Virus record (IMG/VR): IMGVR_UViG_3300044716_000219
Span: 1-61,093 of that record
From: a virus
Reading direction: 5' to 3' (one strand)
Length of the DNA stretch: 61,093 nt
Shown here: positions 22,870 through 50,866 of the stretch, piece after piece
Layout of the letters: the number at the start of each line of letters is the position of its first letter
Position numbering within the stretch: the first letter of the stretch is position 1
Translations under genes and position numbers: made by a program
The notes under the pieces: model-generated
What the model was told of the DNA's origin: nothing
Database searches by the model: none
What the model saw: only the letters and a program-made list of their open reading frames with translations

Positions 22870-23868
22870 ATGCGTTATTCAAATATCAAGACATCTATTG
22901 TCGAGCAGTTTCGTGCAACCAACGGACACAAGGTCGTGCCGTTCATCCTCGGTGCGCCTGGCGGTGGTAAGTCAGCCTGTGCCCGTGACATTGTTCGTGA
23001 GCTTGGCATCGAGAATGTCGTAGAGTTCACGGCTTCGCTTCGTGATCCAGTCGATGTGCTTGGCACACCTAACAACACAGGCGAGTACACACGCTGGGTT
23101 CCGCCCGAGGAGTTCTATCGCTTACGCGCTGGTGTCGGTCGTGCGGCACTCATTCTAGAGGAGTTGTCTGACGCTCAGATTCCCATGCAGAACGCCTTGT
23201 GCGGTGTTGCCTACGATCGTCGTGCGGGTCAACTACAACTGTCTGACCAACTGTTCATCATCGCGACTGGCAATCGTACCGAGGACAAGTCAGGTGCTAA
23301 TCGCATCACATCCAAGCTAGCCAATCGTACCCGTCGCTTTGACTTCCAAGAGAATGTCGATGACTGGACTGACTGGGCGTTAGACAATGACATTGATCCT
23401 GTATTGATTCAGTTCTTGCGCTTCCGCCCTGCGTTGCTGTCTGACTTCGATCCTAACCGCTTCGCCAATCCTACGCCTCGTTCGTGGGAGCGTGTCAACA
23501 TGATACCCGCATCCTTGGACAGTGGACTCTTCTTCGACAATTGTGCAGGTGAGGTCGGTGAGGGTGCCGCCGCTGAGTACACAGGCTTCCGCCGTATCTA
23601 CTTAGCGTTGCCTAACATCGAGAGCATCTTGCTTGACCCTGCTGGTGCTGATGTACCTGCTGACCCTGCGACTCTGTATGCCTTGACTGGTGCGTTGGCT
23701 CGTAAGTCTACCAAGGACAACTTCGATCGTGTATCCAAGTACTTGTCACGCATGAGCCCTGAGTTCAATGTGATGGCAACCAAGGATGCGATCAAGCTGT
23801 GTCCTCAGATCAAGTCGACTCGTGCATTCGTCGAGTGGGCTAGCAAAAATGCCGAGGTGTTAATGTGA
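22870..23868 (+). CDS. MoxR-type AAA+ ATPase
   Basis: 332 aa from the ATG at 22870 (AAGGAAAATC upstream). Walker A GAPGGGKS at residues 28-35, Walker B ALILEEL at 93-99, sensor 1 ATGNR at 132-136 and an Arg-rich segment (ANRTRRF, 151-157) for the arginine finger. The rest is the AAA+ lid and a family-specific C-terminus. MoxR ATPases act as remodelling chaperones with a VWA-domain partner; that partner is at 25763. The next gene starts at a GTG overlapping the stop. Target and role in the phage are unknown; it may load metal or remodel a complex. Confidence 0.92.
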   Translation: MRYSNIKTSIVEQFRATNGHKVVPFILGAPGGGKSACARDIVRELGIENVVEFTASLRDPVDVLGTPNNTGEYTRWVPPEEFYRLRAGVGRAALILEELSDAQIPMQNALCGVAYDRRAGQLQLSDQLFIIATGNRTEDKSGANRITSKLANRTRRFDFQENVDDWTDWALDNDIDPVLIQFLRFRPALLSDFDPNRFANPTPRSWERVNMIPASLDSGLFFDNCAGEVGEGAAAEYTGFRRIYLALPNIESILLDPAGADVPADPATLYALTGALARKSTKDNFDRVSKYLSRMSPEFNVMATKDAIKLCPQIKSTRAFVEWASKNAEVLM

Positions 23869-24095
23869 CATACAGTTGGGCTTACAACCCCGGCATGGGC
23901 ACGCACTTCCTGATGGGGCCTTGGGTGGCTCCTGACGGGAGGGTTGACCACAAAGAGCAGAGGCAGTACGCACACATCCTAGACCCGGGAGGCACGGTGT
24001 ACTGGGCATGTCTTAACCCAAACGAGAAGCCAACAAAGTTCTTCGATCTTGAGGAAGCTAAGGCGTTCTTACTGGCATCGGTAGTACTGCGATGA
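23865..24095 (+). CDS. Small protein of the MoxR cluster (paralogue A)
   Basis: 76 aa from a GTG overlapping the MoxR stop. It starts MTYSWAYNPGMGTHFLMGPW and ends in DLEEAKAFLLASVVLR. This C-terminal helix matches the next gene product (SLDEAKDWAKAVVLL), so the two are likely distant paralogues. Beta-rich N-terminus. Function unknown; coupling to the ATPase suggests a shared role. Confidence 0.75.
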   Translation: MTYSWAYNPGMGTHFLMGPWVAPDGRVDHKEQRQYAHILDPGGTVYWACLNPNEKPTKFFDLEEAKAFLLASVVLR

Positions 24096-24319
24096 AGTTA
24101 GTGTGGAGGGCTGACAGCGACTACACGCACACACTACTCAAGCAAGACACACCTACCAAAATTCCTCAAAGGATGGCGTGGATTGCTAGGGTGTTTGCTT
24201 CCAACACACCACCACATATGTGGCGAGCGCAAATCATCTCTTCACAAGAGAGAGGCGTGTTTACCTCATTAGACGAAGCCAAAGACTGGGCTAAAGCAGT
24301 CGTTCTTCTCAACCAATGA
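24092..24319 (+). CDS. Small protein of the MoxR cluster (paralogue B)
   Basis: 75 aa, starting MKLVWRADSDYTHTLLKQD, in an ATGA overlap with paralogue A. It has a beta-strand core (WIARVFASN, WRAQIISSQERGVFTS) and ends SLDEAKDWAKAVVLLNQ, resembling the last 16 residues of the preceding protein. Such domains with a terminal (D/S)LDEAK helix occur as small phage proteins of unknown role. Confidence 0.75.
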   Translation: MKLVWRADSDYTHTLLKQDTPTKIPQRMAWIARVFASNTPPHMWRAQIISSQERGVFTSLDEAKDWAKAVVLLNQ

Positions 24320-24329
24320 AAGGCACTAT

Positions 24330-25205
24330 ATGCAACCAACTAAACTGGCAGATAAGGTAATCCTTGTCAAGCTGACACAACGCAAAGTCGCATTGACTAA
24401 ACGCGATGCATTCCTATCAGACAAGATACAACGGCAGGAGGGTGACGCATCATTGACGGTGCTTACTAAGTTGTTCAGGTCTAAGGGCAATGCCATTGCA
24501 CAGATCATGACCAAGTTCAACGAGGTGTATGCGTATCACAAGAAGCACACGCTACCCTATGTGGATGCAGGCCCTCGCATCTTGCCTAACGATCTGTACT
24601 TCGAGTACACACAAGAGACTAAGCATCTCATCGCACAGGTGGACAATCTCAAGCGCACTTACATGCCACAGTATGACCAGCTAGTGTTAGAGGATGTGAT
24701 GTATCGCAACAGTGGACACGCGGCAGGTAGGGCTAGTGTGGATGACTACCCGACAGCAGAGCAGTTCGATAGTGCCATGTCGATTGACATTCGCTTCCAA
24801 CCCATGCCTGACTCAAGACACTTCCTATTCGATCTTAGTGACGAGGACTTGCAATCGTTCCAAGCATCAGAGAGCGAGGCATCAGCGGCAATGAACGCAG
24901 ACATTCTTTCGAGGATGCTCAAGCCATTGTCAGCACTCACTCAGCGCTTGCAGGAATATCAGGGTCAGAAGGGTGAACGCTTCCACAACAGTCTTGTCGA
25001 GAATGTGATCGAAGGTTGTGACCTAGCTATGAAGTTGGCAATCAACCCATCGCACGAGTTCATCGACGAGATCAACAAGCTCAAAGCAATGGCGACTGGC
25101 TGTCTCAACACAGTCGAAGTCATCAAAGGATCAGCGAACGCTAGGCATGACGCCAAAGCCAAGCTCGAAGCAGTAGCCGCTCGTATGGCGGATTTCAATT
25201 TCTAA
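24330..25205 (+). CDS. DUF3150-like protein
   Basis: 291 aa. It starts MQPTKLADKVILVKLTQRK and continues through long helices, with a GPRILPNDLYFEYTQE segment at about residues 81-96 and a later DDYPTAEQF followed by a beta part (SIDIRFQPMPDSRHFLFDL). This order (A-D-K-x-x-L-V-x-L start, R-I-L-P middle, D-Y-P) matches my memory of DUF3150 proteins, which sit beside MoxR/VWA genes in phages and proteobacteria. The C-terminal half is coiled coil. It may be the adaptor or substrate of the ATPase; no catalytic residue is seen. Confidence 0.75.
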   Translation: MQPTKLADKVILVKLTQRKVALTKRDAFLSDKIQRQEGDASLTVLTKLFRSKGNAIAQIMTKFNEVYAYHKKHTLPYVDAGPRILPNDLYFEYTQETKHLIAQVDNLKRTYMPQYDQLVLEDVMYRNSGHAAGRASVDDYPTAEQFDSAMSIDIRFQPMPDSRHFLFDLSDEDLQSFQASESEASAAMNADILSRMLKPLSALTQRLQEYQGQKGERFHNSLVENVIEGCDLAMKLAINPSHEFIDEINKLKAMATGCLNTVEVIKGSANARHDAKAKLEAVAARMADFNF

Positions 25206-25214
25206 GGAGGATAT

Positions 25215-25760
25215 ATGATGAGACCAACGCTTTATCAAGCATCTAGGATGCTAACAACTGCAGGTGTATCAGCGCACATTCAGTTCGACCCAACCAAGAT
25301 CACCAACCGACTCAAGAAGTCTATTCAACGGCAGGTGGCGAATGGGGTTCTCACTGGAGGCTATTCATCACACGCCACACGCATCGCCAAGTATCTGTGC
25401 AAGCAGTTTAGTGTCAAATACACAGACAACAGTTGGTATGGTATTCGTGTACCGGCTATGCCAGTAGATCATCGCGAGAAGTTTGTTGAGTTAGTTCAGG
25501 CAGACCTTGCGGCTTACCTATTAGACAACGATACATATAACCCACAATGGGATAAAGACATGGCTAACAAAGCAATCAGTTCAATTAGAGCGGGCTCTGA
25601 TACTGATGTACGAACGCACAGTAAAGAATACAGAGAGAAGCTAGCAATGCTTATTGCAAAGACTCGCACACCTGAAGAGATTAAGAAAGCGGCAGACATT
25701 GCCGCAATGCTTGACGCAGGACTTCCAATCACCATCAACCAATACAACGCAGAGGAGTAA
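25215..25760 (+). CDS. Hypothetical protein of the MoxR-VWA cluster
   Basis: 181 aa. AAGGAGG precedes the ATG at 25215. Mostly helical, with a basic region at residues 27-40 (KITNRLKKSIQRQV) and a central ARIAKYLCKQFSVKYTDNSWYGI segment; the C-terminus is a charged coiled coil. It lies between the DUF3150-like and VWA genes, 2 nt before the latter. No family is recognised. Conserved placement would make it the fourth component of the module. Confidence 0.75.
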   Translation: MMRPTLYQASRMLTTAGVSAHIQFDPTKITNRLKKSIQRQVANGVLTGGYSSHATRIAKYLCKQFSVKYTDNSWYGIRVPAMPVDHREKFVELVQADLAAYLLDNDTYNPQWDKDMANKAISSIRAGSDTDVRTHSKEYREKLAMLIAKTRTPEEIKKAADIAAMLDAGLPITINQYNAEE

Positions 25761-25762
25761 TC

Positions 25763-26869
25763 ATGGCAGTAACTACACTAGACAAAGCTAAAGTGTCCAT
25801 CGTGACACAGCATCCATTCTTCGCATCCATCCTTATGAAGCGACAGCTTATCGAGGATGAGACTATACCAACAGCCGCAGTAGATCAGCGCAACCAGATA
25901 TACATCAACCCAGTCTGGTTCAACACATTGTCTGTTGACGAGATCGTGTTCGTGCTAGCCCACGAGATCGGTCATGTCATCGGTCAGCATGCAACGCGCC
26001 GTGGCACTCGCAACGCTAAGAAGTGGAACATTGCAGGCGATGCTTGGATCAACGACATGCTCAAGGCATCAGGCATTGGTCAGCCAATTAATGGCTGTGT
26101 CGACATGCCCGGCTCCAAGGATGAGACAGTCGATGAGATTTACAACAAGCTCCCCGATGGTGACGGTGAAGGCCCCGGCGGTACAGGCGATGACATCATC
26201 GAGCGCGGCTCACCATTGACACCAGAAGAAGCTACACGCATTGATGCCGAAACTCGTGTTGAGATTGCACAGGCGGCTCAAGCGGCTAAGGCTCAGGGCA
26301 AGATGCCAGCGGCATTGGCTAAGATCATTGCAGACTTGATCGACCCCGGCACACCATGGCATGAGATTCTCGAGCGGTACATGACTTCGTACACTCGTGG
26401 TGACTACACATGGTCACGCCCTAACCGTCGCTTCGCTGACATTGCTTACTTACCAAGCACAGGCAAGGTTGCCGAGATGGGCGAGATCGTCGTGCAGGTC
26501 GATGTGTCTGGCTCTATCAGTCAGCGTGAGTTGGCTCATTACAACGGTCATCTGTCTCGCATCATCGAGCAGTGCAACCCCGAGCGTGTGCATGTCTTGT
26601 ATGTTGACACTGCAGTATGCAAGCATCAGGTGTTCGAGCAGGGCGAGGAAGTAACACTAGAGTTCTACTCTGGCGGCGGTACTGACATGGAGGCAGGCTT
26701 CGACTTCATCGCCAAGGAGGGTATTGACCCCGAGGTATTCGTCTGCTTGACCGATGGTTATACCGACTTCAATGTCGCCAACGCGCCAAGTTATCCAGTT
26801 TTATGGTGTATCTCTAGTGACATTGTGGCTCCTTACGGCGAGAATATCCACTTTTCACTGGAGGAATAA
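25763..26869 (+). CDS. VWA-domain metallopeptidase-like protein (DUF2201 type)
   Basis: 368 aa. The N-terminal zincin-like domain has HEIGH at residues 67-71 and a further His76. A following WNIAGDAWIND (88-98) supplies the third ligand (Asp93), as in the DUF2201 family. A Gly/Asp-rich linker covers 130-150. The C-terminal VWA domain has an intact MIDAS: DVSGS at 247-251, GGGTD at 304-308 and LTDG at 329-332. Both the metal-binding and the MIDAS motifs are complete, so activity is plausible. It should pair with the MoxR ATPase. Chaperone-with-protease, or a pseudo-enzyme that binds a client, are the two readings. Confidence 0.92.
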   Translation: MAVTTLDKAKVSIVTQHPFFASILMKRQLIEDETIPTAAVDQRNQIYINPVWFNTLSVDEIVFVLAHEIGHVIGQHATRRGTRNAKKWNIAGDAWINDMLKASGIGQPINGCVDMPGSKDETVDEIYNKLPDGDGEGPGGTGDDIIERGSPLTPEEATRIDAETRVEIAQAAQAAKAQGKMPAALAKIIADLIDPGTPWHEILERYMTSYTRGDYTWSRPNRRFADIAYLPSTGKVAEMGEIVVQVDVSGSISQRELAHYNGHLSRIIEQCNPERVHVLYVDTAVCKHQVFEQGEEVTLEFYSGGGTDMEAGFDFIAKEGIDPEVFVCLTDGYTDFNVANAPSYPVLWCISSDIVAPYGENIHFSLEE

Positions 26870-27019
26870 ATGGCTGACAACATCGACGACGCAATCACCG
26901 AACTGACCGAACAGTACGATGAGGTATTACAGGCATGCTACGACGCACTAGCGGAGGGCGTGTCACAAGAGCAACGCAATGCTATCAGGGAATCGATAGC
27001 AAAGCATTTAGGCAAGTAA
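26870..27019 (+). CDS. Small acidic helical protein
   Basis: 49 aa, starting MADNIDDAITELTEQYDEVLQ, highly acidic at the N-terminus and helical throughout. GAGGAAT lies upstream of the ATG, which directly follows the VWA gene stop. A terminator lies 5 nt after its stop, so it is the last gene of the MoxR-VWA transcription unit. Function unknown. Confidence 0.7.
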   Translation: MADNIDDAITELTEQYDEVLQACYDALAEGVSQEQRNAIRESIAKHLGK

Positions 27020-27023
27020 CCAC

Positions 27024-27045
27024 GGGGCTTCGGCCCCATTCTTTT
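27024..27045 (+). terminator. Rho-independent terminator ending the MoxR-VWA unit
   Basis: GGGGC (27024-27028), TTCG loop, GCCCC (27033-27037), then ATTCTTTT. A short stem with a stable UUCG loop and a T-rich tail. It separates the MoxR-VWA genes from the next block. Confidence 0.75.
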
Positions 27046-42082: not shown

Positions 42083-45000
42083 TTAGTCAATCTGCTCTGC
42101 AATCTTAGTCTCACGCTTGCGCTGCTCTTGTGGTGCGCGCAACAAACTCGACAGTGGCTGAGGTTTTAAGTCATTACGCCTACGGGCTTCTTGCAGATTC
42201 TTCCACGATTCGCGTGCTTTGGCCATACCCTCGCTGTCTTGTTCGCGATATGCCTTGGCAAACTGATTTTTAATTTTAGTCGAACGCTCAGTAAAGTTCT
42301 TTTCCAAATCCAAAGCAGATTGGCGAGCTTGATAAGTCTCAGCAACCTTGGCAGATGGCAGACCCATGGCAGCAAACACTTGGCCTACTTGGGAAACATC
42401 ATCCGCACTTAGGATCACATCGCCGTTACGACGTGTCAAGCCTTCACCAGCAATGCGTCCTGCTTTGAGCATGTCGCTGATACCCTTTGGCATTGTCTGC
42501 TCGAGGCCGCGATATATATCTCCATTTGCCATAAGGCCAAGGCCGTCTACCATACGAGCGGTCATACCACCGGCTGCACCGCCAGCAATAGTACCGATAG
42601 CTTGAGCAACTCCAGCTTGGGTAGTCAAGTCAAGATCAGCAAATGGTGCAATTGAAAGCATGTTGCCAGCACCAATCTTGCCGGACAAATCTACACCGAT
42701 CAGTGTTGGCGTGCCGCGCATCACAAGCTGCGACCACTCTGGGCCAAGCTCTTTACGCATCCACTCAGTTAAATCAAACGGCTCGTCTTCGTCACCCAAG
42801 AAGAATCCTGCAAGCGCTGCAACGGCGGCGTAGCCGGGTAGACCCATCGCGCCAGCGAAGATTCCGGTGTGAGCAAGGGAGAAGCCCAGTGTACGCAATG
42901 CTGCCTTACGCTCTTTGGGATCGCGAATGTCGTTAAGTAATTTGACGTAGAAACCGATCTGTACCAACTGAAACTTGCGGAACTGCAAAGCAATCTTACC
43001 GAAATTGCTGTTGAAGATTCTCGGTGCATTCATCGACGTGTAGTCGCCGTGCGTATCTTGCAGAATGCCGGCAGCGTATTCGATGGCGGCTTGTTTGTTG
43101 CCTTTCGTTCTAGCCAGCTCAAGACGGTAGGCAGCCATGGCGGTAGACAAACGGTTAATCGCTTCAGTCTTTTGGATGGCAAGGCGCATAGCCTTATTGA
43201 CACGCTGTGCCGACTGGCTGAGCTTGCTATCTGCTTCGACCTTATATTCGTTGATCTCGGTTGCCAAACCAATGTCAATACTTCCACGCTTGACCAAAGT
43301 GTCAATCGCTTCACGCACGTCATCAGGCACTTGGGTAAAGTCAAACTGTTGACCGAACAGCTTAGTGTTTTTAAACAACGGGCCAAGTTCAGAGTACGCC
43401 GTCCACAATGCAGTGCCGACTTTGTTGTAGTCGTGACGACCTGCCATAGCAGGTACAGACATCATGAATGGCTGTGTCAAGTTCTGAATGTAATAGCCGG
43501 GGCTCGTTGCCAAGAAATACTTGGATGACAAGTTCGTCAGCTTTTCCACCCATGGGGTGACGTTGTAGTTTAGAGACTCAACGTAGCGTGTGCTTAGTTC
43601 GTCAAACAGTTCTGTCCGGCGAGTCACATCCCCCTTCTTGGACTCTTTGCGCATAGCTTGCAGAGACTCTTGAATCTCAGGACTAAACTCAATCGAAGCC
43701 AAGAAGTTGGCATCAGCGCGACCTTGTGTTGTGAAGGACTGAAGCATATCTACTTCACCGGAAATACCACGGCGACGCATCTCAGACTTACGGGCGCTGT
43801 CTTCTGCCAAAGTCTCAAGGTACAACTGACTAATCAAATTGTAGACCTTAGCGTTAGCAGTACCTTCGTTGGCGTCTACGGTTGCACGCAGTTTTGTCAA
43901 TGCAGGCAATAAAGCCTCACTGTTGAACTTGTCCATGGCTTCGGCGCGTTTGATAATGCCTGTCGACAAGCCGGGGAACTCTTCGCCAATTTTTGCTTCT
44001 AAGTTGCGGGCTTCCCACTTGGAGTCAACAAAGGACACTTGGTAGTGCTCTGGGTCTTTTTCCAGTTCTTTGATTCGCTTAGTATCTTTGGCGTTCACAG
44101 CAGCAACATATTCGTCAGATCGACTGACAACTGCCCAAGGGCCAGTACGCTTAATTGGCGCATAGGGTAAACCCTCGCGAATCTTGAACAGAGTTTTAAA
44201 GCGCTCTAGTGTGTTGGCTTTCTCGGTCTTCAGTTCGGTTTCCGTCTTTGTGTCACCAGCTTGTTTAGCAATTGCGATAAGCGCGTCGTACTCGGAGGTA
44301 GCAGAATTTAGAACAGTCTGCTTTTTCTCTGACAGCATAGTATTACCGTGCTGAAACACCGCTTTGACAAACGCCTGAGCTTTAGGCTTTAAAGCGTTAA
44401 ACATGGCAGCCATTGCAGGATCGGCTTTCAACGAGCCGCTGTCATAACCCCACTTGGCTTGGCGTGTAGATTCAAGCAAGAAATCATTAACAGTACCGGG
44501 GCCTCGGCCTTTGTGTTCGTCTTCGATCGTGGCATACATATCAGCGATCTTCTCGATGCGGCGCTCACGCTCGCTAGCAGCGGCTGTTCTGTTGGCTAAA
44601 GCTTTGGCAAAACGTTCAGCAGGAAGGCCCGCTTTGGTGGCACGAGCAACCAGATCACTGGTGAATACCACGTAGTCCAAACCTCGGCCCATGATGTCAC
44701 CAAGACCACCAACAATGTTAGTAGCCGGCTGTCTTAGCTGCTGGGGTAGCTTGTTAATGTTGCGATTGATTGCACCTTGATTTGGCGCGTTCTTCCCAAA
44801 CTGCATACGTTGACGGTCAGCCGCCGCTTGAGAGCCGACGCGGAAAATATTCTGGTCGTTAAACACAACGATGTTGCGGGTTGGGTTGCCTAACCGAATG
44901 ACTTTTCGTTTAAGGCGTTCGACATCTTGGCGAACTTGTTCTGCTTGAAACTCCGCAGCTGTCCTAGCATCTACCGCATTCAACCACGTCTTGCGAGCGT

Positions 45001-48000
45001 ATTCTTTCTGCTCTGGAGGAGCTTTATCTTGCAAAGACTCCCACTTATCGGCTTCTTTGGTAGCTTTCTCAACCGCAAGTTCTTTTTCCCGCAGAACTTC
45101 TTGCAGTTGCTGTAGTTTGATTTGCGTTTGGAATTGATTGCCGCGACTGTTTTGATCTAAGAACTTAAGAGCTGGAATGCCGAGCTTTTCATCCAAGTAC
45201 TTGGACACGATTTCCTTAAAGCCGGTGTTAGCCAATCGCTTGTTGTAGTCCTCAACGTCAAACTCTTCACTGACAGCACCAGTTCGCACTTCAACAAAAC
45301 CAAGCCCGCGATAAAACTCATCGCCGGTCATGTCAGCGAGATCAGCACCAACTTGGTCTTCAACGTCTTCGCGCAAAATATCTGATATGGACGCTTCAAT
45401 TTTTGCCAAGATGGCTGGTTGTTTAGACAACGGCTCATCCCAGTTAAGAACATCTTCATCAGCAATGGGAATGTCTACACGCATGAGGCTGCCTTTAGGG
45501 GCAACTGTAGTTTCTGGGGTAACAGAAAACTTTGCGGGATCAAGCGACTTTATGGCAGCAAGGTCTTCACTTGAAGTTTCAATGGTGCTTGTAAGGACAT
45601 CGACATAACCCTGCTCTGGGCCAGAGGGCTTTGAGCTTGACCGTTTTTCAGCTAAAGTTCTTTTTGCAGACTCTAAAACAGTCTTCTTCTTTGCAATATA
45701 ACGTTCTAGGTCGGCGCTTGCTTCTTTAATAGCTTCAGCAGCGGTTAGCCCACGCTCGAACATTAACTTGTACACTGGAACAGTTGCAGCGTTTTGTTCA
45801 GGGCTAGCACGTCCTATTGCGACGCCGTCGTAAAGGGCTTTTGCTTTAGTAGTTACTGTTTTGCGTTCCACGTCAGCTGACCAGTAGCCCTTGGCAATTC
45901 CAACACTTTGTGCAAAGTAAGAACCCCAGCCATAAGCCTGAGCGCCTTCGCCAGTGCCCATAAAGTCATGGTTAAATCTACGGAAAGCTGCTGCAGTTCC
46001 GTGCCACGTGCCATTAATTTCCAAACGAGCCGCACCAAACGCCAAGTTAACAACGTCTTGAGCGGTTAAAGATTCTGGTTTGAAACCGAGCTTACGAGCG
46101 GCAATCTTGAACGCAGCCCACAACGTACGGAACCAGTCCATTAGAGGGCCTGACTCTTTGGAAACTGCTGTAGGATCAATGCCAGCATCGATGGCTTCTT
46201 CGAGGAAGTAAGCTAAGAGTTCGTTGTTTTGCTGAGTTTCAGCTGTGCCAGCGCTTTCAAAACGTTTCGTTGCGCGTTGCGCTAATACAGATTCAATAGA
46301 ACCATCTTTCTTCTTAGCCCAGCTTTGTAACTGCTCGATTAATTTGTTGTAGGTTTGTTTTGTAAGTAGATTTTCCAAACCAAGGTGAGCCCCAACCTCG
46401 TGCATGAACTTGGCACGTCCAGAACCCCGATTAATTCGATCTGCGATCAAATACGCACGGCCATCTGTGGCAACGCCGTAGGCATTCTCTTTTTGAATTG
46501 CCTCACCAACCGCTCTAACTTTTGAATCGGGGTCGTTGAGTAGATCGTCTATGGTGTTAACCACCATGAGTTTGCGACCGGGTATGTCGGCACGGATGAA
46601 ATCTTTTAACTCTGCCAGCAGTTGTTTTGCCGTGTATGGTTTCTTGGCTTTGCCGTCTTTACCAAACAGCATGTTCTCTTCTTTGGCAACCACAGTGCGA
46701 TCAGCAGCAGCCTGTGTTGTAGCTGACTTGACAGGCGTAGAAACTGTCTTCGTCACTGGCTGTACACCCTCACGCACGAGGCGGTCATCAGGGACATTTC
46801 CGGTGATAAAGTCATTGACTGTATTCTGTGCATCAGGAACCACGAACAACTTAGAGCCATCCATGTTGTCGCCGTACTTGGTAATCAAGTCACGGTAAGT
46901 TTCTTTGTCAACGTTGATACAGCCAAATGAGTAACGAGAATCGCCAGCGGCTTCGCTTTTTAAAGCAGCAGCACGTTGGGGAGCGTCTTTTTCTTTTAGC
47001 CAGACAGAATGCATAAATGTCACAACTGCGTCCGGGTCTTCCAAAGCAAACACTTTGCCGAAGTCGTAGTCACCTGCAGTTACTGCTGCGCTACCGCCTT
47101 TAGCTGCATCAATTATTTTGATGCCGAACAAACCGGCTGGAGTCACGCGGTTTTGTGGCAGGTCGTTGTTACCGATATACAAGTCACCTTTAGCCAGACC
47201 AAACAAAGACTTCTTTTGCAGAACAAAAGAACCGTCGGCTTTAAAAACAAAGATACGACCGCTTGGTTTATCGGCAATCGTAATAAACTTGTTACCAATT
47301 TTGTCTTTCAAAGCAGGAACTAAACGGGCATAAGCCTGTTTGCCAGCGTCAGACATCATGGCAGCTTCGGCAGGAACCTCGGCCAACACTTGTTGCGTGG
47401 TTACTTTTGTCTCTTGTGGAATCACCATAAATGATTCAATTTGAGAGATTGCTCCGGGGTTAAAAATCATGGCCACCGAAAGCACACCTGCATGCAACGT
47501 TTTAATAATGTCGCGAATAGCACCTGCCACCGCTTCTGCACCCTTGGTAGCGTACAGAACAACATCTTCTTTAACCTTGGCTAAGAACTCAGCGCTATCT
47601 CGTTTAAGGTTGTAGTGTTTTTCAAGCCGGTTAACTTGCGGTGCAGGCAAAGCAGCAACACGCGGGCCAACGGTTTCCTCAATCACGCGAGCTTCAACAT
47701 CAATAGTCACTGGCTCTTTGGTCAGCAACTGCTGCAAGCCCATCTCTTTAGCAACTACGGGTTTACCATTGGTACGAACAGCCAAATCGGTCAGGTATTC
47801 CTGCTCAAGCTTAGTCAACTGCTCGTATGGAACCAAACCGGGTGTCTTATCAGAAAGGCTCTCCCACAGGGCTCTGCCTCTATCTACTTGGCCTTTGGCT
47901 TGGCCTTGGGTTTGACCTTTGCCGGCAGGCTTTTCGGTACGCCGTACTTGGCCGCCCACTCCTTGGCCAGCTTGGGTTTCTGGCTGAACAGGTACGACTG

Positions 48001-50866
48001 CTGCGCCTTGGACTTGAACGGCATTTGTTTTCTCCAGTTTAGCCATCTTGACAGACAGCTCTTTAGTTTGACCGCTTTGGAAATCAACGGTCACGATGGT
48101 TGCATCTCCGTCGCCGGAGAATCCTTTGACCACGCCGGTACCCAACTTAGGGTTTACTACGGTGTCGCCAACTTCAAGACCCTTACGGTCAGCAGCACGT
48201 TTAGCAGCGGCTTCGGCACGAAGTTTTTCAGCTTCAGCTGCTTTTGCGGCATCTTTTTCTTCGGCGGCTTTTTGAGCAGCTTCAGTTTTCTTTTCAGCTT
48301 TAGTTTGTTTGCGTTCAGCTTTAGGAGCAGTAATACTTTCTGTCAGCGCAGTGTAGTCAGCTGTTAAAGCGTTAATGCGTTCGGTAGCAGCAGCCTCGGC
48401 TTGAGCCAATCCAAGTTGTTTTAGTTCGGCGGCAGCGGCTTGCAATTCAGCAATTTTGTCTGCAATGTTTACCAACTTCACGGCCATCTGGCTTCCGGCG
48501 GTACTGGCTTTCTGCCATTCGCGAGAATCATCTAAGCTGGCAAACATTTCACCGGCTTCACCTTCAAGACCTAAGTTCTTCAAAGCAGACGTCAAATCAC
48601 CAGACTCAATGTTTCCTTTGACCTGATCGATTTTTTCACTGAGCTCCGACATCTTGGCAATGTCAGCTTTAGAGGGCGACGCTTTAGCTTCCAGTTTGGC
48701 AAGATCACTTTCCAATTTGCCGAGTTCTGTCGAGGCGGCTTTCTGTGCGGAGTCAATGCCCAAATGAGTAAACACTTGGTTGCGATCAAAGCCCATGTCC
48801 TCTGCAATATCTGCAAGGATTTCTGGGTTACCGATCTGACGAACGCGAGACGCATCAATACCAAAGGTGTCAGCAACTTCCTTAGCGACGTTACCTTTGT
48901 AGCCTTCAGGTACAGATTTACGGGCAAGAATATACGCCTGCAAGATTTTGCGGTCGCGCTCTTTATTCTTTGACTTGGCGAGGTGCTGGTCAATGACAGC
49001 TTCCATTTCGTTATTGCCAAAGTCGAGTTGATCTGCGCGACCGCCTTCTTGGTCTTGGCGCATGGCTTCAATCTCGGCAGCGTTGCCTGTGGCACGAGCA
49101 ATCTCTAACGCATCATCTGAAGTGTCGACCAGATTAGTAGTACCGGGTGCACTGCGAGTAGTTTGGCCTTGGTCTACAACGGTAGATGGTTGGCCACTGG
49201 TGCTTGGAAGAACTCCAGCTTGTTGAGGTGGGGCTCCAGCTGCGGTGGTATCTCCACCCACTGTTCCTTGGACAGCAACATCTGATCCTGCAGCTCCCAC
49301 AGTTCCCGGAACGACAGCGCCCCCGACTCCCAAGCCTCCTGCAGGCTGTTGTACAGTAGAAATTCCTGTGCCACTTGATGCCTCCTTGCGTGCTTGAATA
49401 ATAGCAGCATCGAGAAGTTGTTGCACTTTCTCCAAACGCTTAGGAGTCATTGGCTTTGGGTCTGAGGCGTAATTCCACACGTCCTGAAATACAGGGCTAG
49501 ACAACTCAAGGTTGTTTTCCTTAGCGAGTTTCTGTATCTCATCAAAAAACTGCAAAGACGAGGGCGTAGCGATAACACCGAATGTGTCGCGCAACTCGGT
49601 TCTGGGAGTAACTGTCAAGGGAGCTGGAGCGCTACCCAACAAATTTGCTCCGCTAAGAGGGTTGCCCATCAACGAAGACGCCGCTGTACCTGTAAGACTT
49701 TCGCCCAACGGTTGAGTCAGATCAGTTTCTTCACTAATTAAAGTTGGTGTTGTTAGTTTAGGGCCGCCTAAAGGATTAGCCATTAACGCAGCAGGATCAG
49801 TACCCGTGAGGCTTGCTCCAAGAGGTGCTTTTGTTTCAAGACCAACTTGTGGCTGCTCTGGAGCCAGCAAATTTAATTCTTGCTGAGGGGCTTGATACTG
49901 TTCACTACGACGCCAGCCGCCAGCTGCACCACCAATAGTGCCGCCAAGAAGCGCACCGCCAATAGCTGATTCTTTATAGCGAGCAAGCGCAGCATCAGAC
50001 AAGAACTGCTCGTTAGGGTCAACGGCCATACGGCCAAGCTGACTAGTCATTTCCTGAAGGGTCTCAGTGCCACCTTCTACCAAACCGGTAGTTAAGCCTG
50101 TGGCTGCTGTGCGAGCCACACCGCCTCTAAATCCAGAAAGGTCATCAAGCGCTCTAACACCCGATCGGAAACCCTGCTGCCTAGCCAACGCGCCTTCTAG
50201 ACCGAGAGCGTTCAGAGCTGAGTAGGGGACACCAAGAGCTGCTGCAGCACCTAAATTTGTTTGACCGTCAGCCTGTTCTCGTTGGGCTTGCAGAATATCG
50301 CCGACTGCGGATGGGTAGCCAGCAGTGACACCGCCAAGAGTCTGGCCTGTACGGAGCGCTCTAGTAGCCTGTGCGGCAGCGTTTACATCTCCGGCAGTTT
50401 GTGCAGCGCCGAGGGCTGCACGAGTACCAGTCATCAAACCACGAGCAACTAAACCACCACCAAGGGCCTCAGCCATGTATGGGGCGGAGCCAATAGCCAA
50501 ACCGCCAATGTAGCTTGGCAGATCAGAAACACCTCGAACATCTTCAAAGCTTTCAATGGCACCTTGTGCGCGAGCTCGTTCGGAGGCTACGTTAGCTTCA
50601 AACTCATTGGCCTCACGACCACGACGGAAGAAGTCTGCGCCTGTAACCGCTTCACCCAAACCATACAAACCTGCTTGATATCGGTCAAGAGCTGCACCAG
50701 TGCGAAGTCCAGAGATTCCAGACTGTGTAGGCTTGTAACCATATTCCGAAGCAATCCTACCGGGGGATACACCCGCCGCAGTAGAAGCTAATTGCAGAAG
50801 CTGCTCATCGCTTTTATCGTTAGCAAACGCCCCGAGGGCGGATCGCAGGTCTGCAATAGACGGCAT
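42083..50866 (-). CDS. 2927-aa polyvalent ejection/virion protein with L,D-transpeptidase, zincin and ART-like domains
   Basis: An N-terminal hydrophobic, Gly/Ala-rich region lies at about residues 60-320. Low-complexity linkers, a coiled coil (about 700-890) and a tudor/KOW-like domain (GDTVVNPKLGTGVV, about 898-942) follow. An L,D-transpeptidase (YkuD) domain has His1286 and the catalytic SFGCINV Cys1316. A zincin-like HEVGAH (His1489-His1494) comes next, with a downstream ELLAYFLEE. A polyvalent-type ADP-ribosyltransferase-like region begins WHG (His1622) with YGWGSYFA near 1647, and has a NIVVFND end near 2005. The C-terminus has an FGKIALQFRKF segment (about 2620) of the PLxRFG type. Likely packaged and injected to cut peptidoglycan and modify host targets. 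Confidence 0.9.
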   Translation of the reverse strand: MPSIADLRSALGAFANDKSDEQLLQLASTAAGVSPGRIASEYGYKPTQSGISGLRTGAALDRYQAGLYGLGEAVTGADFFRRGREANEFEANVASERARAQGAIESFEDVRGVSDLPSYIGGLAIGSAPYMAEALGGGLVARGLMTGTRAALGAAQTAGDVNAAAQATRALRTGQTLGGVTAGYPSAVGDILQAQREQADGQTNLGAAAALGVPYSALNALGLEGALARQQGFRSGVRALDDLSGFRGGVARTAATGLTTGLVEGGTETLQEMTSQLGRMAVDPNEQFLSDAALARYKESAIGGALLGGTIGGAAGGWRRSEQYQAPQQELNLLAPEQPQVGLETKAPLGASLTGTDPAALMANPLGGPKLTTPTLISEETDLTQPLGESLTGTAASSLMGNPLSGANLLGSAPAPLTVTPRTELRDTFGVIATPSSLQFFDEIQKLAKENNLELSSPVFQDVWNYASDPKPMTPKRLEKVQQLLDAAIIQARKEASSGTGISTVQQPAGGLGVGGAVVPGTVGAAGSDVAVQGTVGGDTTAAGAPPQQAGVLPSTSGQPSTVVDQGQTTRSAPGTTNLVDTSDDALEIARATGNAAEIEAMRQDQEGGRADQLDFGNNEMEAVIDQHLAKSKNKERDRKILQAYILARKSVPEGYKGNVAKEVADTFGIDASRVRQIGNPEILADIAEDMGFDRNQVFTHLGIDSAQKAASTELGKLESDLAKLEAKASPSKADIAKMSELSEKIDQVKGNIESGDLTSALKNLGLEGEAGEMFASLDDSREWQKASTAGSQMAVKLVNIADKIAELQAAAAELKQLGLAQAEAAATERINALTADYTALTESITAPKAERKQTKAEKKTEAAQKAAEEKDAAKAAEAEKLRAEAAAKRAADRKGLEVGDTVVNPKLGTGVVKGFSGDGDATIVTVDFQSGQTKELSVKMAKLEKTNAVQVQGAAVVPVQPETQAGQGVGGQVRRTEKPAGKGQTQGQAKGQVDRGRALWESLSDKTPGLVPYEQLTKLEQEYLTDLAVRTNGKPVVAKEMGLQQLLTKEPVTIDVEARVIEETVGPRVAALPAPQVNRLEKHYNLKRDSAEFLAKVKEDVVLYATKGAEAVAGAIRDIIKTLHAGVLSVAMIFNPGAISQIESFMVIPQETKVTTQQVLAEVPAEAAMMSDAGKQAYARLVPALKDKIGNKFITIADKPSGRIFVFKADGSFVLQKKSLFGLAKGDLYIGNNDLPQNRVTPAGLFGIKIIDAAKGGSAAVTAGDYDFGKVFALEDPDAVVTFMHSVWLKEKDAPQRAAALKSEAAGDSRYSFGCINVDKETYRDLITKYGDNMDGSKLFVVPDAQNTVNDFITGNVPDDRLVREGVQPVTKTVSTPVKSATTQAAADRTVVAKEENMLFGKDGKAKKPYTAKQLLAELKDFIRADIPGRKLMVVNTIDDLLNDPDSKVRAVGEAIQKENAYGVATDGRAYLIADRINRGSGRAKFMHEVGAHLGLENLLTKQTYNKLIEQLQSWAKKKDGSIESVLAQRATKRFESAGTAETQQNNELLAYFLEEAIDAGIDPTAVSKESGPLMDWFRTLWAAFKIAARKLGFKPESLTAQDVVNLAFGAARLEINGTWHGTAAAFRRFNHDFMGTGEGAQAYGWGSYFAQSVGIAKGYWSADVERKTVTTKAKALYDGVAIGRASPEQNAATVPVYKLMFERGLTAAEAIKEASADLERYIAKKKTVLESAKRTLAEKRSSSKPSGPEQGYVDVLTSTIETSSEDLAAIKSLDPAKFSVTPETTVAPKGSLMRVDIPIADEDVLNWDEPLSKQPAILAKIEASISDILREDVEDQVGADLADMTGDEFYRGLGFVEVRTGAVSEEFDVEDYNKRLANTGFKEIVSKYLDEKLGIPALKFLDQNSRGNQFQTQIKLQQLQEVLREKELAVEKATKEADKWESLQDKAPPEQKEYARKTWLNAVDARTAAEFQAEQVRQDVERLKRKVIRLGNPTRNIVVFNDQNIFRVGSQAAADRQRMQFGKNAPNQGAINRNINKLPQQLRQPATNIVGGLGDIMGRGLDYVVFTSDLVARATKAGLPAERFAKALANRTAAASERERRIEKIADMYATIEDEHKGRGPGTVNDFLLESTRQAKWGYDSGSLKADPAMAAMFNALKPKAQAFVKAVFQHGNTMLSEKKQTVLNSATSEYDALIAIAKQAGDTKTETELKTEKANTLERFKTLFKIREGLPYAPIKRTGPWAVVSRSDEYVAAVNAKDTKRIKELEKDPEHYQVSFVDSKWEARNLEAKIGEEFPGLSTGIIKRAEAMDKFNSEALLPALTKLRATVDANEGTANAKVYNLISQLYLETLAEDSARKSEMRRRGISGEVDMLQSFTTQGRADANFLASIEFSPEIQESLQAMRKESKKGDVTRRTELFDELSTRYVESLNYNVTPWVEKLTNLSSKYFLATSPGYYIQNLTQPFMMSVPAMAGRHDYNKVGTALWTAYSELGPLFKNTKLFGQQFDFTQVPDDVREAIDTLVKRGSIDIGLATEINEYKVEADSKLSQSAQRVNKAMRLAIQKTEAINRLSTAMAAYRLELARTKGNKQAAIEYAAGILQDTHGDYTSMNAPRIFNSNFGKIALQFRKFQLVQIGFYVKLLNDIRDPKERKAALRTLGFSLAHTGIFAGAMGLPGYAAVAALAGFFLGDEDEPFDLTEWMRKELGPEWSQLVMRGTPTLIGVDLSGKIGAGNMLSIAPFADLDLTTQAGVAQAIGTIAGGAAGGMTARMVDGLGLMANGDIYRGLEQTMPKGISDMLKAGRIAGEGLTRRNGDVILSADDVSQVGQVFAAMGLPSAKVAETYQARQSALDLEKNFTERSTKIKNQFAKAYREQDSEGMAKARESWKNLQEARRRNDLKPQPLSSLLRAPQEQRKRETKIAEQID

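What the first reader, a model, noticed from the sequence alone, without database searches (positions are those of the whole stretch)
22870..26869. Phage MoxR ATPase / DUF3150-like / VWA-zincin module
An intact MoxR AAA+ ATPase and an intact VWA protein with MIDAS plus an HExxH-type site are separated by two small paralogues, a DUF3150-like and an unknown 181-aa gene, all in one coupled unit ending in a terminator. Bacterial MoxR-VWA pairs remodel or activate protein complexes, and some belong to conflict systems. Why a lytic phage carries a full module is not known; it may inactivate a host complex or defence.
Basis: partly seen in the sequence, partly recalled or inferred. Interest (0 to 1): 0.75.

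Follow-up and report, generated by a model that had tools for sequence, protein, structure and literature searches.

The report
Phage MoxR/DUF3150/VWA-protease remodelling module
A freshwater phage carries a conserved set of genes for an ATP-driven protein-remodelling machine with a built-in protease; the same three-gene core is found on conjugative plasmids and integrated elements, so it looks like shared mobile-element equipment, but its target is unknown.

Summary
Of 66 related viral loci holding both ends, 65 keep ATPase-DUF3150-VWA in that order. Every tested Walker B, sensor, HExxH and MIDAS residue is invariant. The 181-aa gene is common but optional; the small ORFs vary. An independent anchor (DNA polymerase) finds the VWA gene in all 38 loci with enough upstream sequence.

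A two-gene form (ATPase plus zincin-VWA) is already known: N4 gp24/gp25, core middle genes of N4-like phages, and group 2.2 jumbo phages (Iyer 2021). What appears undescribed is the three-gene form with DUF3150, shared by this lineage, cyanophages, Burkholderiales plasmids and a Chitinophaga conjugative-type element.

Best reading: a non-virion, infection-phase MoxR/VWA chaperone-protease that remodels a protein complex. A host target is inferred, not shown; virion assembly and replication are live rivals. 'HNH endonuclease' labels for this family are unsupported. Novelty: new variant of a known kind.

The parts
22870..23868 (+). MoxR-type (AAA_5-like) AAA+ ATPase, 332 aa: Walker A GAPGGGKS, Walker B LILEE, sensor-1 N135, putative Arg finger R153, putative sensor-2 R204
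   Evidence: bacterial homologues pass PF07728
23865..24095 (+). small ORF, 76 aa, GTG start; variable accessory
   Evidence: homologues in about 10 of 80 loci
24092..24319 (+). small ORF, 75 aa; variable accessory, weakly related to the preceding ORF
   Evidence: homologues in 38 loci
24330..25205 (+). DUF3150-related protein, 291 aa, predicted mostly helical; third constant gene
25215..25760 (+). 181-aa protein, fast-evolving, optional; confident mixed alpha/beta model (pLDDT 88) with no convincing PDB match
25763..26869 (+). DUF2201 protein, 368 aa: N-terminal zincin (HExxH 67-71, H76, D93), C-terminal VWA with MIDAS (D247xSxS, T307, D331)
26870..27019 (+).
   Evidence: homologue in 61 of 80 loci, nearly always right after VWA
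27024..27037 (+). terminator-like GC hairpin with TTCG loop followed by ATTCTTTT
   Evidence: 21 sites found vs 12.9 expected by chance, so a single site is only suggestive

Best explanation
The module encodes a protein-remodelling machine. The AAA+ ATPase forms a ring; the DUF2201 protein is its co-chaperone. Its VWA/MIDAS face grips an acidic surface of a target complex, the ring uses ATP to pull or twist it, and the attached zincin can cut the exposed target. The DUF3150 protein is a third constant subunit (adaptor or scaffold). The 181-aa protein is an optional factor, perhaps for specificity. The module is made with the replication genes, not the structural genes, and acts inside the infected cell on a host or host-element protein complex rather than as a virion part. 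Shown: gene content, order, conservation of catalytic residues, co-inheritance, presence on phages, plasmids and a conjugative-type element. Inferred from NorQ/NorD, CbbQ/CbbO, RavA/ViaA and ATV: ring formation, MIDAS target binding, remodelling. Inferred with little support: that the zincin is active, the subunit roles of DUF3150 and the 181-aa protein, and that the target is a host complex.
For: Catalytic and metal-binding residues invariant over wide divergence. Purifying selection: dN/dS 0.02-0.22 for ATPase, 0.04-0.22 for DUF3150, 0.07-0.14 for VWA. Order ATPase-DUF3150-VWA in 65 of 66 viral loci, and with an independent polymerase anchor the VWA gene in all 38 loci with at least 6.4 kb upstream. 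The same triad on conjugative plasmid pBMC401 directly before T4SS genes (VirB11-type ATPase, VirB2, VirB3, VirB4), on a Variovorax SRS16 plasmid, and (order ATPase-VWA-DUF3150) in Chitinophaga beside TraM/TraN-like genes as read by eye; no virion exists there. The module lies on the + strand upstream of polymerase, exonuclease, helicase and primase genes; terminase, portal and capsid are on the - strand. N4 gp24/gp25 are homologues, are middle transcripts, and are among 14 core genes of 25 N4-like phages (PMC4193335). The N4 and LIT1 virion proteins named in the passages read do not include them (PMC3715699). The NorQ ring with NorD VWA, whose MIDAS is needed for target activation, is experimental precedent (PMC9976466).
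Against: No target, interaction, ATPase or protease activity is known to me for any homologue of the full triad. Early expression is inferred from strand and neighbours; no transcript data exist for this phage. The LIT1 virion list was read only in passages, not in the full table. An assembly chaperone need not be in the virion. The 181-aa protein evolves fast but no faster than accessory neighbours 27066 and 27798, so no arms race is shown. PADLOC gave no convincing match. Two-gene versions sit in ordinary chromosomes near non-conflict genes such as type IV pilus-like genes.
Confidence: 0.42

Rival explanations
1. Virion-assembly chaperone-protease: the machine helps assemble or mature head or tail proteins and the zincin processes them, as proposed by Iyer et al. 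for group 2.2 jumbo phages and as with the ATV p618/p892 pair.
For: Published proposal (PMC7824862); ATV p618 with VWA protein p892 binds virion proteins and was assigned a role in tail development (PMC4124505). RPP1 has a second structural module near the gp24/25 homologues expressed in mid-infection (PMC4193335).
Against: Not in the structural transcription unit here. The same triad is on plasmids and a conjugative-type element without virions, although T4SS assembly would be an analogous job. Phages with unrelated virions share the ATPase-VWA pair.
Confidence: 0.22
2. Replication or recombination remodelling: the ring loads, unloads or dismantles phage DNA-replication complexes (helicase, primase, polymerase).
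For: Gene neighbourhood: upstream of polymerase, exonuclease, helicase and primase genes here; beside a helicase and the DNA polymerase in LIT1 and K479; core in N4-like phages.
Against: On pBMC401 and the Chitinophaga element the neighbours are transfer genes. No DNA-binding domain was recognised. Neighbourhood alone is weak.
Confidence: 0.22
3. Element-borne defence or exclusion system: a conflict module against competing phages or plasmids, like the host MoxR-vWA ternary systems with peptidase effectors.
For: MoxR-vWA ternary systems with peptidase effectors are proposed conflict systems (PMC7159879; PMC12839542). Mobile distribution.
Against: Core gene in every N4-like phage compared and in this lineage, not patchy; core genes conserved, without swapped effector domains; no convincing PADLOC match.
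Confidence: 0.1

Closest known systems
Phage N4 gp24/gp25 and N4-like core genes
   Same: Homologous ATPase (HMM E 4e-48) and zincin-VWA protein (E 5e-43), same order, HExxH and MIDAS residues present
   Different: Two genes only: no DUF3150-related gene or 181-aa gene seen between or beside them in N4; different phage family
MoxR plus metallopeptidase-vWA pairs of group 2.2 jumbo phages (Iyer et al. 2021, PMC7824862)
   Same: AAA+ ATPase with a vWA co-chaperone carrying an N-terminal metallopeptidase domain
   Different: No DUF3150 subunit mentioned in the passage read; proposed for virion assembly; the pair here sits with replication genes
ATV p618/p892
   Same: Viral MoxR ATPase with an interacting VWA partner (PMC4124505)
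   Different: No peptidase domain according to Iyer et al.; p618 is a virion component; archaeal virus
MoxR-vWA ternary systems (VMAP, iSTAND; PMC7159879, PMC12839542)
   Same: Three components built on a MoxR-vWA pair, often with peptidase domains
   Different: Third component is DUF3150-related, not a recognised VMAP or iSTAND; gene order differs from VMAP-MoxR-vWA; on phages and plasmids; no variable effector fusions seen
NorQ/NorD and CbbQ/CbbO
   Same: MoxR ring plus VWA co-chaperone using MIDAS to remodel a target enzyme (PMC9976466)
   Different: No zincin domain (own knowledge); known metabolic targets

Membership tests
MoxR AAA+ / VWA chaperone pairs | AAA+ ATPase with Walker A/B, sensor and Arg-finger residues | tested here: met
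   Walker B reads EE rather than DE; Arg finger and sensor 2 are assigned by position only
MoxR AAA+ / VWA chaperone pairs | Membership of the MoxR/AAA_5 clade by profile | tested here: inconclusive
   Window protein below the PF07728 cut-off (12.8 vs 22 bits); homologues L171, L146, L090 and L174 above it; no MoxR subfamily tree made
MoxR AAA+ / VWA chaperone pairs | Adjacent VWA protein with complete MIDAS | tested here: met
MoxR AAA+ / VWA chaperone pairs | Physical complex and ATP-dependent remodelling | not testable with these tools
   needs biochemistry; an apparent ATPase-VWA fusion in L120 contains unknown bases and was discarded
DUF2201 (PF13203 + PF09967) | Both domains above the curated cut-offs | tested here: met
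   175 vs 23.2 bits and 78 vs 26.4 bits
DUF3150 (PF11348) | Match above the family cut-off | tested here: not met
   no match to PF11348 in the window or in 15 family members
DUF3150 (PF11348) | Homology through an intermediate sequence | tested here: met
   P0004 profile hits L089 (77.7 bits) and L102 (116.9 bits) proteins; these match PF11348 at 28.5 bits (over cut-off) and 22.8 bits (just under)
HNH endonuclease (label of phrog_1314) | HNH/beta-beta-alpha metal nuclease domain | tested here: not met
   no HNH family among Pfam hits; zincin and VWA domains match residues 5-143 and 242-363
VMAP/iSTAND ternary conflict systems | Third component VMAP or inactive STAND | tested here: inconclusive
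   no such Pfam match for the third protein; remote relation not excluded, model confidence low

The most novel reading that the evidence does not exclude
ATPase, DUF3150 protein and zincin-VWA protein form a distinct three-subunit remodelling protease of mobile genetic elements, shared by unrelated phages and conjugative elements, which dismantles a conserved host complex (a defence or housekeeping assembly) during establishment of incoming DNA, with exchangeable small adaptors setting the target.
Probability: 0.22. Interest if true: 0.8.

Novelty: new variant of a known kind. Interest (0 to 1): 0.48.

Why it matters
Homologues of this ATPase and protease-VWA pair are core genes of N4-like phages, including the laboratory phage N4, yet their job is unknown and they carry a misleading 'HNH endonuclease' label. 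Showing that the same pair travels with a third subunit on phages, plasmids and a conjugative-type element points to a need common to incoming mobile DNA rather than to particle building alone, and gives tractable models (N4 gp24/gp25, Burkholderia plasmids) for finding the target.

Tried and rejected
blastn of the module against phage records: no match, so all comparison was at protein level. tblastn of the 181-aa protein in phage records: none. PDB fold searches with the 181-aa model: no Foldseek match at E <= 0.001; VIA-align best Z 7.2 to PedB over 65 residues of a helical part, within the background for such models. Viral library: one relative-like hit, an unnamed phage protein of 183 aa (E 1e-6). 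The DUF3150-like model is poor (pLDDT 67) and was not searched. Apparent ATPase-VWA fusion in L120: unknown bases at the joint, rejected. Apparent 181-aa homology of the L088 ATPase: 21 residues, 10 bits, rejected. The gene between ATPase and VWA in Vibrio phage K479 and in LIT1 is not the 181-aa protein by profile; the K479 one reads as a homing-endonuclease-type gene (by eye). The 181-aa gene as evidence of an arms race: rejected, neighbours evolve as fast. A first pass on the 49-aa ORF used a wrong frame and was redone. CRISPRi-ART paper: no mention of N4-type phages or MoxR. DUF3150 is named in no paper of the library.

Full report
What is there. The window is a 61,093-base virus record with terminase, portal and capsid genes on the - strand and DNA polymerase, exonuclease, helicase and primase genes on the + strand. 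The module sits on the + strand upstream of the polymerase. A GC hairpin followed by T-rich sequence lies at 27024-27037; the scan found 21 such sites against 12.9 in shuffles, so one site is only suggestive.

Identity of the parts. The last large protein matches PF13203 (putative metallopeptidase) at 175 bits and PF09967 (VWA-like) at 78 bits. The ATPase matches PHROG 1297; Pfam AAA_5 is below its cut-off for the window protein but above it for plasmid and chromosomal homologues. The 291-aa protein matches no Pfam family convincingly, on its own or in 15 family members, but its profile hits third-gene proteins in Paraflavitalea (L089) and Variovorax (L102), and these match PF11348/DUF3150 at 28.5 bits (over the cut-off) and 22.8 bits (just under it). 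So it is a remote DUF3150 relative. Many database records call the VWA protein 'HNH endonuclease'; no HNH domain is found and the two recognised domains match residues 5-143 and 242-363, so the label is probably a propagated error.

Conservation and co-occurrence. A scan of IMG/VR with the VWA protein gave 80 loci. In 66 of them the ATPase gene is also held; 65 of these have the DUF3150-related gene between ATPase and VWA, the exception being L068. The 181-aa gene is usually just before VWA at 20-77% identity (81% in the near-identical L042), sits after VWA in L071 and L072, and is not found in several loci (L050, L051, L053, L056, L064, L066, L069, L070). Small ORFs come and go. A second scan anchored on the DNA polymerase, not on the module, found the VWA gene in all 38 loci with at least 6.4 kb of upstream sequence. 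Walker B, sensor and putative Arg-finger residues are invariant in 65 homologues; HExxH, H76, N89/A91/D93 and MIDAS residues in 78. The HExxH and MIDAS residues also hold in LIT1, K479, Deifobo and the cyanophage Pra-JY27, and in N4 gp25 by reading. dN/dS is 0.02-0.22 for the three core genes and 0.18-0.42 for the 181-aa gene. In L042 the 181-aa gene has a much higher dS (0.37) than the genes beside it (0.09-0.13), which suggests local exchange. The 181-aa gene is nevertheless no more variable than accessory neighbours 27066 and 27798.

Where else it occurs. 689 phage records have a VWA match and 756 an ATPase match, among them N4-like phages, Vequintavirinae and jumbo phages. N4 gp24 and gp25 are homologues. 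In phage records the DUF3150-related gene was found only in three cyanophage records of equal length. Among plasmids, 120 records have the VWA protein, 109 the ATPase, and 44 a relative of the Chitinophaga DUF3150-type protein, mostly Burkholderiales. On pBMC401 (conjugative, MOBP, MPF_T) and Variovorax SRS16 plasmid 2 the order is ATPase-DUF3150-VWA; on pBMC401 T4SS genes follow directly. In Chitinophaga cymbidii (L090) the order is ATPase-VWA-DUF3150 near genes that read as TraM/TraN and ParB by eye. Many bacterial contigs carry the two-gene form. In trees of ATPase and VWA proteins the three-gene label needs 6 and 5 changes against 13 in shuffles: the third gene is strongly clustered but has been gained or lost several times. 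Some two-gene labels come from short contigs and could be wrong.

How it likely works. MoxR/VWA pairs studied by others act as ATP-driven remodellers: in NorQ/NorD the ring is plugged by the VWA protein, whose MIDAS is needed for target activation and is proposed to bind acidic residues of the target (PMC9976466). The conserved ATPase and MIDAS residues here fit that scheme. The conserved zincin site suggests the target, or part of it, is cut, but catalysis is not shown. The DUF3150 protein is constant in this lineage and mostly helical by a low-confidence model, so adaptor or scaffold is a guess. In phage N4, gp24 and gp25 are middle transcripts and belong to 14 genes shared by 25 N4-like phages (PMC4193335). 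The virion proteins named for N4 and LIT1 in the passages read do not include them (PMC3715699; the full table was not read). Together with the plasmid occurrence, this favours a role inside the cell during infection or establishment over a role in the particle, but not decisively.

What is known and what is new. Iyer et al. 2021 reported the MoxR plus metallopeptidase-vWA pair in group 2.2 jumbo phages and proposed virion assembly and processing (PMC7824862); ATV p618/p892 is an experimental viral precedent without the peptidase (PMC4124505). Host MoxR-vWA ternary systems use VMAP or iSTAND third components (PMC7159879, PMC12839542). The library holds no paper naming DUF3150, so the DUF3150 three-gene form on phages, plasmids and a conjugative-type element appears undescribed, within the limits of an open-access library. 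It is a new variant of a known kind, with the target as the open question.

Noticed in passing
window 25763-26869; N4 NC_008720 gp25 (L254:3165-4307): PHROG 1314, which this DUF2201 zincin-VWA protein matches, is labelled 'HNH endonuclease', and many phage records carry that label for it; it looks like a propagated misannotation.
   Followed up: partly
L042:2967-3509: The 181-aa gene of a near-identical relative (ATPase and DUF3150 proteins 99-100% identical) is only 81% identical, with about 3-4 times higher dS than its neighbours, suggesting local allelic exchange.
   Followed up: partly
L255:3454-4494 (Planktothrix phage Pag-Yong1): Two genes downstream of the cyanophage VWA gene is a protein annotated as anti-CRISPR AcrVA2; whether this neighbour recurs beside the module was not checked.
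   Followed up: no
L068 / L230 (contig IMGVR_UViG_3300031857_000280): The only viral locus with ATPase and VWA but no detectable DUF3150-related gene between them; it keeps a divergent 181-aa homologue.
   Followed up: partly
L172 (Sphaerotilus plasmid pSna507_unt13) and L174 (Synechocystis pSYSA): Two-gene MoxR/zincin-VWA pairs lie near DUF262 genes, and on the Sphaerotilus plasmid also near a Sir2-family gene, a setting that resembles defence-gene neighbourhoods.
   Followed up: no
window 42083-50866 (-): A 2927-aa protein is encoded on the - strand with the structural genes; its function was not examined.
   Followed up: no
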